Shown piece after piece: positions 27,374 to 51,767 of a stretch of DNA of 64,000 nt. The stretch's first letter is position 1. Every line of letters begins with the position of its first letter. The DNA lies in contig CAIVED010000027.1 of NCBI GenBank assembly GCA_903904885.1, positions 1 through 64,000 on the forward strand, written 5' to 3'. Position numbers and translations under genes: made by a program. Origin of the DNA: an uncultured archaeon. GTDB taxonomy: Archaea; Nanobdellota; Nanobdellia; Woesearchaeales; CAIVOO01. The notes beneath the pieces are model-generated. The model ran no database searches, was not told the origin of the DNA, and was given only the letters and a program-made list of their open reading frames with translations.

Positions 27374-27501
27374 GCCCCCGTAGCTCAGCAGGTTCCTTGA
27401 GAGCCTAGCTTTCAGGGTTGCAAAGAGCGCATGGCTGTTAACCATGAGGTCACCAGACAGAAAGATAATCTTTCTGGGTGAATTCGAGTCTGGTCGGGGG
27501 C
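27374..27501 (+). tRNA. tRNA-Asn (GTT) with D-loop and T-loop introns
   Basis: Acceptor GCCCCCG (27374-27380) pairs with CGGGGGC (27495-27501). The anticodon arm CATGG-CTGTTAA-CCATG (27430-27446) gives GTT at 27437-27439, and the T stem ACCAG/CTGGT closes the loop TTCGAGT. The D-loop spans 38 nt instead of about 9 and holds a hairpin (CCTTGA/TCAGGG with AGC/GCT on top). The T-loop has 26 extra nt (about 27457-27482) forming an 8-bp hairpin CAGAAAGA-TAA-TCTTTCTG. There is no intron at the usual 37/38 site. Both extras must be spliced to give a normal tRNA; exact junctions are uncertain. No CCA is encoded. Confidence 0.85.
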
Positions 27502-27504
27502 GTA

Positions 27505-28275
27505 TTATTTTCTTAGTAAATTTTCTCGAATTGAAAGAGAAGTACCTGGAGGCACAAACCCTTGTTTTTTCCAGAGAAAGTACTTTGTTAACTGGACAGG
27601 CGAATTAAATCCAATTTCAGACATCCATTTATTCAGTCTTGGAACACCATTAATCTGAATGTAATAATTTCTGTGAACCTTCCCCTTTCTTGTCTGAAAT
27701 CTGGAATTTGAATAAAATTTAAATTTTAAATCTTCCAGTATTTTCTTTGTTGAATTATGTAAAACTTCGTCAGAAGTTTGATAATCAATAACTGGGTAAT
27801 AATTGATGTTTTTGTGCCTTGCCTTGAAAGCAAGGCTAAAATCAGCGTCAGCGAGACCTCTCAGGAATGACCTTTTAATTTCAGGATTGCTTTTAAGAAT
27901 TATGCTTGGAAACTCATAATTTGACTTTTTCCCTAAAGGCAATCCGCATTTTTCATGGAGAAATGAGAGTATTGTTTTTGAGTATATTGTTATATTAGCT
28001 GTTGTCTTTTTTGATAAAACTTTTACATTTTTATTAAACAGCTTTTTTATTAATGGACATAAGAAGGATTTATACCATTTTAGCTCTTCAGAAAGATTTC
28101 CATCATATGAAATATAGTAATTAACCCCATTCCTCTTTTTATAAACACTCATCGATCCGTCTCCAAGATGAAACCCGAGCAGATAAGCTAATTCTAGATT
28201 TAGTGTTTCGGGCAGTTTTATTTTTTGTTTCAAGTCTAAATCACTAAAAGAGATATCTGAGGAGTCAAATTTCAT
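27505..28275 (-). CDS. LAGLIDADG homing endonuclease
   Basis: The 256-residue protein has two LAGLIDADG helices: LAYLLGFHLGDGSM (residues 29-42) and FLRGLADADFSL (about 138-149), so it would act as a pseudo-symmetric monomer. Between and after them are the usual beta-rich DNA-contact segments (YYIQINGVPRLNKWM). Its stop codon is 3 nt from the end of tRNA-Asn on the opposite strand, and the message, driven by TATTTAAAT (about 28303-28295), is probably leaderless. Closeness to a multi-intron tRNA suggests it spreads tRNA introns, but it is not itself inside a tRNA intron as laid out here. Confidence 0.85.
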   Translation of the reverse strand: MKFDSSDISFSDLDLKQKIKLPETLNLELAYLLGFHLGDGSMSVYKKRNGVNYYISYDGNLSEELKWYKSFLCPLIKKLFNKNVKVLSKKTTANITIYSKTILSFLHEKCGLPLGKKSNYEFPSIILKSNPEIKRSFLRGLADADFSLAFKARHKNINYYPVIDYQTSDEVLHNSTKKILEDLKFKFYSNSRFQTRKGKVHRNYYIQINGVPRLNKWMSEIGFNSPVQLTKYFLWKKQGFVPPGTSLSIRENLLRK

Positions 28276-50650: not shown

Positions 50651-50662
50651 GTTTTAAAAACA
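50651..50662 (+). promoter_or_regulatory. TATA box upstream of the first tRNA-Gln 5' copy
   Basis: GTTTTAAAAACA lies about 28 nt before the first copy of the tRNA-Gln 5' end (50685), the same spacing as at the other tRNA genes here. The complete tRNA at 51652 has no comparable box in front of it. Confidence 0.55.
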
Positions 50663-50683
50663 AGCATAATACAGAATATTTCA

Positions 50684-50706
50684 CAGCCCCGTGGTGTAGT
50701 GGTCAA
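50684..50706 (+). repeat. Direct repeat: duplicated 5' end of tRNA-Gln (first copy)
   Basis: These 23 bases (CAGCCCCGTGGTG then TAGTGGTCAA) are identical to 51651-51673, which begin the complete tRNA-Gln. They cover the acceptor 5' strand, D stem and most of the D-loop. The copies are 967 nt apart and flank the homing-endonuclease gene. Confidence 0.95.
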
Positions 50707-50744
50707 GCAAAAATATTTAAATACTCCCAAACTGAATTTATTCA

Positions 50745-51704
50745 ATGAGAATTAAACTAAAAAAATTAAAACAAAAAGAACTGATTAATAATTTCAAAAA
50801 AGAAAACAGTCTCACCTGGGCAGAACTTTCTGATGTACTAGGCGTCAAAAAGGGGGCATTGCTGAACTGGTATTATGAAAGAACACTATTACCCCGTTCA
50901 GTTTATAAAAAGATAGACCCAAGAGGCATTTATAGAAAGTTCATAATACAAGAATATAGTGAAAAGTGGGGAAAAAGTAAAGGGGGCCACAATTCAAAGG
51001 GGAATACTAAGTATGTAAAAGCCCCTCAATATTCCGAAAAATTAGCGGAGCTTGTAGGAATAATTCTTGGTGATGGAAATTTGAATTTGTACAATAAAAA
51101 CGGCTTTGGAACTTATTCAATTAGAATAACTGGCGATGCCAACAAAGACGCGGAATACTTAAGAGTTTACATACCCCATTTATTTAGAGATATTTTTAAC
51201 GTAGAAGCAAAAATATACAAACCAAAAAACAATAATGGGTTAGTAGTGCTAGTTCATAGCAGGATGGTCCTAGAGCATATGGAAAAAATGGGTTTAAAGA
51301 ATGGAAATAAGCTTAAAAATCAGATTACGATACCCAAATGGATATGGAGTTCTGATTCTTATTTGAGAGCATGCACAAGAGGATTAATCGATACGGATGG
51401 TTCAATTTATGAGCTTAAAACACACTGGCCAGGCACTTATCAGATAAATTTTGAGAATAGCAATATGACCCTACTAAAAGACTTCAGAAAAGCTCTGATT
51501 CACATAGGGTTTATTGTATCAAAAATCTGCTCTAACCGGTCCAAGATAAGAGGGAAAAAGATATATATAACTCGTAAAGACCAGATAGAAAAATATTATA
51601 AAGAGATAGGTTCTTCAAATCCTAGAAAGAGAGAAATACTTAAAAGAAGCCAGCCCCGTGGTGTAGTGGTCAAATTTCTCTCTGAAAAGAAAGACCAGGC
51701 ATAG
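50745..51704 (+). CDS. LAGLIDADG homing endonuclease with N-terminal HTH
   Basis: 319 residues. N-terminal helix-turn-helix-like segment (SLTWAELSDVLGVKKGALLNWYY, about 22-44), then LAELVGIILGDGNLN (100-114) and RACTRGLIDTDGSI (about 208-221), the two LAGLIDADG helices. The last 17 residues are encoded by the first half of tRNA-Gln, because the stop codon lies at 51702-51704 inside the tRNA. A TATA-like ATTTAAATACTCC at 50714 gives a leaderless start. The element is bordered by a 23-bp repeat of the tRNA 5' end, so it behaves as a mobile intron or tRNA-targeting element. Confidence 0.85.
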   Translation: MRIKLKKLKQKELINNFKKENSLTWAELSDVLGVKKGALLNWYYERTLLPRSVYKKIDPRGIYRKFIIQEYSEKWGKSKGGHNSKGNTKYVKAPQYSEKLAELVGIILGDGNLNLYNKNGFGTYSIRITGDANKDAEYLRVYIPHLFRDIFNVEAKIYKPKNNNGLVVLVHSRMVLEHMEKMGLKNGNKLKNQITIPKWIWSSDSYLRACTRGLIDTDGSIYELKTHWPGTYQINFENSNMTLLKDFRKALIHIGFIVSKICSNRSKIRGKKIYITRKDQIEKYYKEIGSSNPRKREILKRSQPRGVVVKFLSEKKDQA

Positions 51705-51767
51705 TGGCCTTTGGCAGTCTGAAACTGAAGACAGCCATTGACGGCGGTTCGAATCCGCCCGGGGCTA
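51652..51767 (+). tRNA. tRNA-Gln (TTG) with D-loop and 37/38 introns
   Basis: Acceptor AGCCCCG/CGGGGCT (51652-51658, 51760-51766), discriminator A. Anticodon stem GTGGC/GCCAT; joining CTTTGG (51709-51714) to A51733 gives loop CTTTGGA, anticodon TTG. The 18-nt intron at 51715-51732 has GTCT/AGAC ends. The D-loop holds about 25 extra nt (about 51674-51698) with GGTC/GACC and TTTCT/AGAAA pairings, so a second intron is likely. T arm GGCGG-TTCGAAT-CCGCC. The endonuclease gene ends inside this tRNA. Intron borders are approximate. Confidence 0.85.

What the first reader, a model, noticed from the sequence alone, without database searches (positions are those of the whole stretch)
50651..51767. Homing endonuclease flanked by a duplicated tRNA-Gln 5' end, with its stop codon inside the tRNA
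A 23-bp exact copy of the tRNA-Gln 5' end sits under the only well-spaced tRNA-type TATA box (50651), while the complete tRNA follows 967 nt later. Between them is a LAGLIDADG gene whose last 17 codons are the tRNA's own first half. Either the RNA is one transcript with a 1-kb intron in the D-loop, with the first copy as exon 1, or the element inserted by duplicating half the tRNA and regenerating a full gene. Protein and tRNA share nucleotides, which forces co-evolution.
Basis: partly seen in the sequence, partly recalled or inferred. Interest (0 to 1): 0.8.

Follow-up and report, generated by a model that had tools for sequence, protein, structure and literature searches.

The report
Homing gene that swaps tRNA halves
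A selfish DNA-cutting gene sits inside an essential tRNA gene and has brought its own replacement front half of that tRNA plus a tiny intron; relatives at the same kind of site occur across many small archaea, which offers a testable origin for their odd tRNA introns.

Summary
A 25-nt tRNA-Gln 5' half (50685-50709) lies 967 nt upstream of a complete tRNA-Gln(UUG) gene (51652-51767), with a LAGLIDADG gene (50745-51704) between them that ends inside the tRNA. The left copy reads GTCAAGCA: it crosses the exon junction without the 25-nt D-loop intron that the complete gene carries between nt 21 and 22. It therefore looks like the leftover start of an intronless resident gene. Cutting out 992 nt (50710-51701) restores that gene exactly.

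The layout recurs. In 70 of 129 related endonuclease loci a same-strand tRNA starts within 100 nt of the stop codon. In 14 of 68 tested loci a 5'-half remnant lies upstream at p<0.01 (0.7 expected). One genus holds occupied, empty and intron-only versions of one locus. In some relatives the remnant differs from the functional half, so that half came with the element.

Best reading: a homing element made of endonuclease gene, replacement tRNA 5' half and short BHB intron, not a 1-kb intron. Cleavage and splicing are inferred. Precedents: one Caldiarchaeum tRNA-Thr case, read as a recombinase insertion, and fungal mitochondrial genes with endonuclease-borne gene ends.

The parts
50652..50661 (+). 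TATA-like box TTTTAAAAAC, probable original promoter element of the resident tRNA-Gln gene
   Evidence: 23 nt before the left copy; the genome's tRNA-Gln(CTG) gene on C3 has TTTAAAAAC at the same spacing
50685..50709 (+). displaced 5' half of the resident tRNA-Gln gene (nt 1-24 and no intron), the remnant left copy
   Evidence: identical to nt 1-25 of the spliced 73-mer; exact repeat
50710..51701 (+). inserted unit, 992 nt (ambiguous by 3 nt because GCA is present at both ends)
   Evidence: removing it restores the uninterrupted tRNA gene exactly
50714..50723 (+). TATA-like box TATTTAAATA of the endonuclease gene
   Evidence: about 26 nt before the ATG; direct sequence
50745..51704 (+). LAGLIDADG homing endonuclease gene, 319 aa, HTH-like N-terminal part plus two LAGLIDADG motifs; stop codon inside the tRNA
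51652..51673 (+). exon 1 of the functional tRNA-Gln: 5' half provided by the element
51674..51698 (+). 25-nt D-loop BHB intron between tRNA nt 21 and 22: helix GGTC/GACC, bulges AA^A and AG^G, inner helix TTTCT/AGAAA
   Evidence: absent in intronless relatives
51699..51714 (+). exon 2 of tRNA-Gln up to the anticodon intron
51715..51732 (+). 18-nt intron in the anticodon loop after nt 37
   Evidence: boundary fixed by alignment to intronless tRNA-Gln
51733..51767 (+). exon 3 of tRNA-Gln, 3' half of the resident gene

Best explanation
This is a homing element inserted in the D-arm of the tRNA-Gln(UUG) gene. SHOWN by sequence: the unit is 992 nt and consists of an endonuclease gene, then a tRNA 5' half, then a 25-nt BHB-type intron. 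It splits an intronless resident tRNA gene 3 nt past the intron site. The resident 5' half is left behind, under what looks like its own promoter, as a remnant, and the element's half completes the gene. INFERRED: the LAGLIDADG enzyme cuts intronless tRNA-Gln genes near nt 24-25. Repair of the break from an occupied copy then inserts the whole unit. The short intron (or a changed sequence) destroys the cut site, which protects the carrier, and the host splicing endonuclease removes the intron so the tRNA still works. The tRNA is probably transcribed through the endonuclease gene from the upstream promoter(s), with its 5' end made by RNase P. Loss of the endonuclease gene can leave the short intron behind as a scar.
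For: Left copy = uninterrupted exon junction and exact restoration of the empty gene. Same layout in G001 and G142 with the same 3-nt overshoot. 70 of 129 related endonucleases have a same-strand tRNA starting within 100 nt of their stop. 5'-half remnants in 14 of 68 loci at p<0.01, 0.7 expected. BHB motif in 27 of 42 adjacent D-loop inserts, 2.0 expected. The endonuclease tree follows tRNA isotype, 9 changes against 25.7 shuffled, across mixed hosts. Occupied, empty and intron-only versions of a syntenic locus in one genus, with a remnant that carries a different intron from the functional half. Invariant catalytic aspartates and an I-DmoI-like fold. Host splicing endonuclease gene present.
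Against: No cleavage, splicing or transcript data. In the window itself the two 5' halves are identical, so replacement by foreign sequence is shown only in relatives. No empty version of this exact locus was found. About a quarter of adjacent tRNAs have no intron, so the intron cannot be the only immunity device. Related loci are not independent, and relatives were gathered with an alignment whose members mostly adjoin tRNAs.
Confidence: 0.8

Rival explanations
1. One transcript with a ~1-kb D-loop intron: left copy = exon 1, endonuclease inside the intron, spliced to exon 2 at 51699.
For: The left copy sits under the well-placed TATA box, and its last bases can pair with GACC before the 3' splice site.
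Against: 0 inner-helix pairs for the left splice site here against 5 for the proximal one, and the same in four other loci; remnants decay in relatives; some loci have a remnant but no intron.
Confidence: 0.05
2. Integrase-type insertion of a plasmid or virus remnant into a tRNA att site, as proposed for the Caldiarchaeum tRNA-Thr locus.
For: Such elements also regenerate a tRNA and leave a partial copy (PMC3293823).
Against: The unit holds only a LAGLIDADG gene; no integrase; left and right halves differ in relatives; the enzyme's phylogeny follows the tRNA isotype.
Confidence: 0.06
3. A free-standing endonuclease gene that happens to lie beside a tRNA, with an unrelated local duplication of the tRNA 5' end and an independently gained intron.
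For: About half of the related genes are not next to a same-strand tRNA.
Against: The repeated association of endonuclease, tRNA 5' end, remnant and intron site in many genomes and presence/absence within one genus.
Confidence: 0.05
4. Split tRNA: the left copy is a 5'-half gene whose RNA is joined in trans to a 3' half.
For: A half-tRNA sequence with its own promoter-like box.
Against: A complete tRNA gene lies downstream; the sequence after the left copy folds no better than shuffles and shows no partner.
Confidence: 0.02

Closest known systems
Caldiarchaeum subterraneum tRNA-Thr(GGU) insertion (Sugahara et al. 2012, PMC3293823)
   Same: 5' tRNA fragment (nt 1-27), ORF directly upstream of a complete tRNA on the same strand, new intron (24/25) in the complete copy; fragment runs 3 nt past the intron site, as here
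   Different: One locus; 1,868-bp insert with a repeat region; the 813-bp ORF was called a putative DNA recombinase and linked to pNOB8-type plasmids; homing endonucleases are not mentioned
Fungal mitochondrial mobile ORFs with replacement gene ends (Allomyces atp6; Glomus atp6, atp9, cox2, nad3; PMC3630166)
   Same: A LAGLIDADG or GIY-YIG gene inserted in a host gene together with a foreign copy of one gene end; the native end is displaced and left as a remnant
   Different: Protein genes and 3' ends there; a tRNA gene, the 5' end and an added BHB intron here
HE-encoding archaeal rRNA introns (I-DmoI, I-Tsp061I)
   Same: Protein fold and archaeal introns
   Different: There the gene lies inside the intron; here it lies outside a 25-nt intron
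Collaborative homing by free-standing endonucleases in phages (reviewed in PMC3984707 and PMC2988022; my knowledge for details)
   Same: Endonuclease gene outside the intron, thought to cut the intron-less site
   Different: Group I introns in phage protein genes; no replacement gene half
tRNA-targeting integrative elements (SSV1, pNOB8 types, as described in PMC3293823)
   Same: Regenerate a tRNA gene and leave a partial copy
   Different: They use an integrase and att recombination; no integrase in this unit

Membership tests
LAGLIDADG homing endonuclease (PF14528) | significant family match and two LAGLIDADG motifs with conserved acidic residues | tested here: met
   4.4e-11 over cut-off; D110 and D218 columns invariant in 26 relatives; I-DmoI-like fold
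LAGLIDADG homing endonuclease (PF14528) | site-specific DNA cleavage of the empty target | not testable with these tools
   needs biochemistry; insertion junctions are consistent with a cut near nt 24-25
Archaeal BHB tRNA intron | central 4-bp helix, two 3-nt bulges, inner helix | tested here: met
   GGTC/GACC with AA^A and AG^G and 5 inner pairs; 27 of 42 relatives' inserts against 2.0 expected
Archaeal BHB tRNA intron | host encodes the tRNA splicing endonuclease | tested here: met
   PF01974 at 1.4e-29 on contig C10
Archaeal BHB tRNA intron | removal from the transcript | not testable with these tools
   no RNA data
HE-encoding intron (I-DmoI type) | endonuclease gene lies inside the spliced intron | tested here: not met
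   the intron is 25 nt and the gene lies upstream; the long-intron BHB is not formed
Gene-end replacing mobile ORF (fungal mitochondrial type) | endonuclease gene between the displaced native gene part and a complete hybrid gene | tested here: met
   window anatomy and relatives
Gene-end replacing mobile ORF (fungal mitochondrial type) | the inserted gene part is of foreign origin | tested here: inconclusive
   clear in relatives (L126, L078, L080, L135; G155); in the window the two halves are identical
Caldiarchaeum tRNA-Thr element | ORF 'b' homologous to this protein | not tested
   its sequence could not be reached with these tools
Integrase-type tRNA integration | integrase gene within or beside the unit | tested here: not met
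   only the LAGLIDADG gene lies in the 992-nt unit
Split tRNA gene | separate half gene with a pairing leader and no complete gene | tested here: not met
   complete gene present; no stable fold after the left copy
Collaborative homing | endonuclease outside the intron cuts the intron insertion site | not testable with these tools
   position fits; cutting not measured

The most novel reading that the evidence does not exclude
A cross-domain family of homing elements works by swapping tRNA 5' halves: in archaea usually with a short BHB intron as immunity device, in CPR and related bacteria without one. It is a major source of non-canonical tRNA introns in DPANN archaea, and the Caldiarchaeum tRNA-Thr 'recombinase' insertion is one of its members.
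Probability: 0.45. Interest if true: 0.9.

Novelty: new variant of a known kind. Interest (0 to 1): 0.8.

Why it matters
How archaeal tRNA genes gain introns at odd positions is an open question. The published model that I found rests on a single population and an assumed recombinase (PMC3293823), and a separate proposal says that tRNA introns protect against mobile DNA (Randau and Soell 2008, as cited in PMC4090602). This element type joins the two: the intron arrives with the mobile gene and would protect its carrier. It gives a directly testable prediction: the enzyme should cut the intronless tRNA gene and not the intron-bearing one. It also shows how an essential tRNA gene can host a 1-kb selfish gene without a 1-kb intron, and it explains many LAGLIDADG proteins with tRNA-encoded tails.

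Tried and rejected
A protein scan of genome contigs with the single sequence found nothing; the six-sequence alignment then found 400 relatives, 80 kept. ARAGORN missed this tRNA, presumably because of its introns. The downstream DUF2207 gene did not help to find an empty site in relatives. Viral contigs gave only weak relatives, up to 34% identity. A 3'-half counterpart for endonucleases that converge on tRNA 3' ends was found in only 1 of 14 loci at p<0.01, plus one case seen by eye (L029), so it is not claimed as a rule. I expected bacterial relatives to be a negative control for tRNA adjacency; they were not. No remnant beside the second endonuclease of the window could be told apart from the neighbouring tRNA-Ile.

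Full report
WHAT IS THERE. The window holds a complete tRNA-Gln(UUG) gene at 51652-51767 (Rfam 45.2 bits). It is interrupted by a 25-nt insert in the D-loop (51674-51698) and an 18-nt insert in the anticodon loop (51715-51732). Removing both gives a 73-nt tRNA that aligns end to end with intronless tRNA-Gln genes of other genomes, up to 90% identical. 967 nt upstream lies an exact copy of the 5' half. Aligned to the spliced tRNA, the left copy matches nt 1-25 of the query (50685-50709), whereas the right copy matches only nt 1-22 before its intron starts. So the left copy reads GGTCAAGCA straight across the exon junction: it is the start of a gene that had no D-loop intron. Deleting 50710-51701 (992 nt) rebuilds that gene exactly.

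THE PROTEIN. The ORF 50745-51704 (319 aa) is a double-LAGLIDADG protein (PF14528). The catalytic aspartate columns are invariant in 26 relatives. The AlphaFold model is confident (pLDDT 89.6) and matches the archaeal enzymes I-Tsp061I and I-DmoI. The last residues, which are read from the tRNA, are predicted disordered. Relatives stop at different points of their tRNAs, very often at a stop codon 14 or 9 nt into the tRNA, that is at tRNA nt 13-15 or 8-10. The overlap is real, but I see no sign that it constrains the protein's core.

PROMOTERS. The box TTTTAAAAAC lies exactly 23 nt before the left copy. The genome's other tRNA-Gln gene (anticodon CTG, contig C3) has TTTAAAAAC at the same 23-nt spacing. 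This marks the left copy as the original gene start. Directly after the left copy comes TATTTAAATA, about 26 nt before the ATG of the endonuclease gene, which fits a leaderless archaeal mRNA (direct sequence). No well-spaced box precedes the right tRNA copy; the nearest starts at 51596-51597, about 55 nt upstream, so read-through from upstream is likely (inference). I found no second UUG tRNA-Gln gene in this genome, so the gene is presumably needed.

RELATIVES WITH THE SAME LAYOUT. In G001 (same family, other genus) the order is left copy AGCCCCGTAGTCTAGCGGTCAA|GGA, endonuclease 43% identical, then a tRNA-Gln(CUG) with a 20-nt BHB intron at the same site. Here too the left copy runs 3 nt past the intron site; in L071 (G142) it runs GGTCAA|TCA, again 3 nt. 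Surveying 352 genomes of the order and a named collection, I compared 129 distinct endonuclease ORFs with tRNA genes found by a purpose-built covariance model. In 70, a same-strand tRNA starts within 100 nt of the stop codon. From 31 tRNA genes per 1.3 Mb I estimate 0.3 expected by chance. Hosts named in the records include Woesearchaeota, Pacearchaeota, Diapherotrites, Micrarchaeota and Aenigmatarchaeota. The tRNAs are mostly Gln (34), then Glu, Gly, Val, Pro and Asp. The endonuclease tree follows the tRNA isotype (9 changes against 25.7 in shuffles, none of 200 as low) while host lineages are mixed, as expected for site-specific elements that move between lineages.

REMNANTS AND INTRONS. Upstream of the ATG, a 5'-half remnant of the adjacent tRNA is found at p<0.01 in 14 of 68 loci (0.7 expected) and at p<0.05 in 19 (3.4 expected), often 48-68 nt before the ATG. 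Some remnants are identical to the right copy (recent or conserved), others clearly different (L126, L078, L080, L135). Of 42 D-loop inserts in adjacent tRNAs, 27 form a BHB motif at the right place against 2.0 expected from shuffled inserts. By length cut-offs, 17 of the 68 adjacent tRNAs have no intron at all.

OCCUPIED, EMPTY, SCAR. Within one genus the tRNA-Gln locus between dph5 (diphthine synthase) and rpsO, both named by my reading of the translations, exists in three states. G155 has endonuclease plus D-loop intron, and so has G161. G147 has neither, with both flanks aligned. G160 has a D-loop intron and no room for the endonuclease. In G155 the left remnant carries another, older tRNA intron (AGCCCCGTGGAAGAATT...) typical of sister species, while the functional 5' half lacks it. 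That is direct evidence that the 5' half was replaced.

MECHANISM. Shown: insertion position, composition of the unit, recurrence, and presence/absence polymorphism. Inferred: the enzyme cuts the uninterrupted tRNA gene near nt 24-25; repair from an occupied copy inserts the unit; the intron, or a changed sequence, blocks recutting; the host splicing endonuclease, present in this genome, removes the intron.

THE 1-KB INTRON IDEA. The left copy's splice site has 0-1 pairs available for the inner helix against 4-10 at the proximal site in five loci, remnants decay, and some loci have a remnant but no D-loop intron in the right copy. I rate it at 5%.

PRIOR WORK. Sugahara et al. 2012 (PMC3293823) described one Caldiarchaeum tRNA-Thr locus with the same anatomy: 5' fragment nt 1-27, ORF directly upstream, new intron at 24/25. 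The 3-nt overshoot is the same. They attributed it to a putative recombinase of plasmid origin; the term homing endonuclease does not occur in the paper. Fungal mitochondria have LAGLIDADG elements that bring replacement gene ends (PMC3630166). The papers found did not describe endonuclease elements that swap tRNA halves; most subscription literature was not searchable. I therefore file it as a new variant of a known kind.

BEYOND ARCHAEA. Relatives of the protein in CPR bacteria and Omnitrophota also sit directly upstream of tRNA genes (21 of 23 loci checked, mostly serine and tyrosine tRNAs by my reading, without archaeal-type introns), with three plausible 5' remnants, L156, L160 and L161. 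The remnant statistics there are weak (0 of 21 at p<0.01, 2 at p<0.05), so this is a lead only.

CAVEATS. Related loci are not independent. Relatives were gathered by similarity to an alignment whose members mostly adjoin tRNAs. The genomes are mostly metagenome assemblies. No biochemical step has been observed.

Noticed in passing
L138-L175 (bacterial loci): Bacterial relatives of the endonuclease (CPR, Omnitrophota) also end at or inside same-strand tRNA genes (21 of 23), mostly long-variable-arm tRNAs; L156, L160 and L161 have plausible tRNA 5'-half remnants before the endonuclease start.
   Followed up: partly
window 27374-28275: A second LAGLIDADG gene (27505-28275, minus strand) converges on the 3' end of a tRNA-Asn (about 27374-27502, read by eye) that appears to carry a D-loop and a T-loop insert.
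   Followed up: partly
L008, L029, L220, L225, L236, L241, L244, L250, L256: Another group of endonucleases runs antisense into tRNA 3' ends, with the stop codon made by the T-loop (C-termini like GDAGI); L029 and L220 have a duplicated tRNA 3' end on the far side.
   Followed up: partly
L020:593-1230: An ORF resembling a Fic/Doc-type toxin (by eye) lies between two 23-nt copies of a tRNA 3' end, next to a tRNA with a T-arm insert and a LAGLIDADG gene on the other side.
   Followed up: no
L270, L276, L278, L285, L287; also L040, L045: A short segment (GGCAGATTCG and similar) complementary to the tRNA's own T-arm lies just upstream of many tRNA-Gln genes, most with a second, different D-arm intron.
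   Followed up: no
L282, L292, L295, L297: tRNA-Gln genes in one genus preceded by a second short copy of the acceptor 5' strand (AGCCCCG...AGCCCCGTAGGG), perhaps an intron in the acceptor stem or another kind of insertion.
   Followed up: no
L005:1244-1274 (G001): The displaced tRNA 5' half runs straight into the endonuclease start (GGTCAAGGAGAAATG), so the tRNA remnant supplies a Shine-Dalgarno-like AAGGAG.
   Followed up: no
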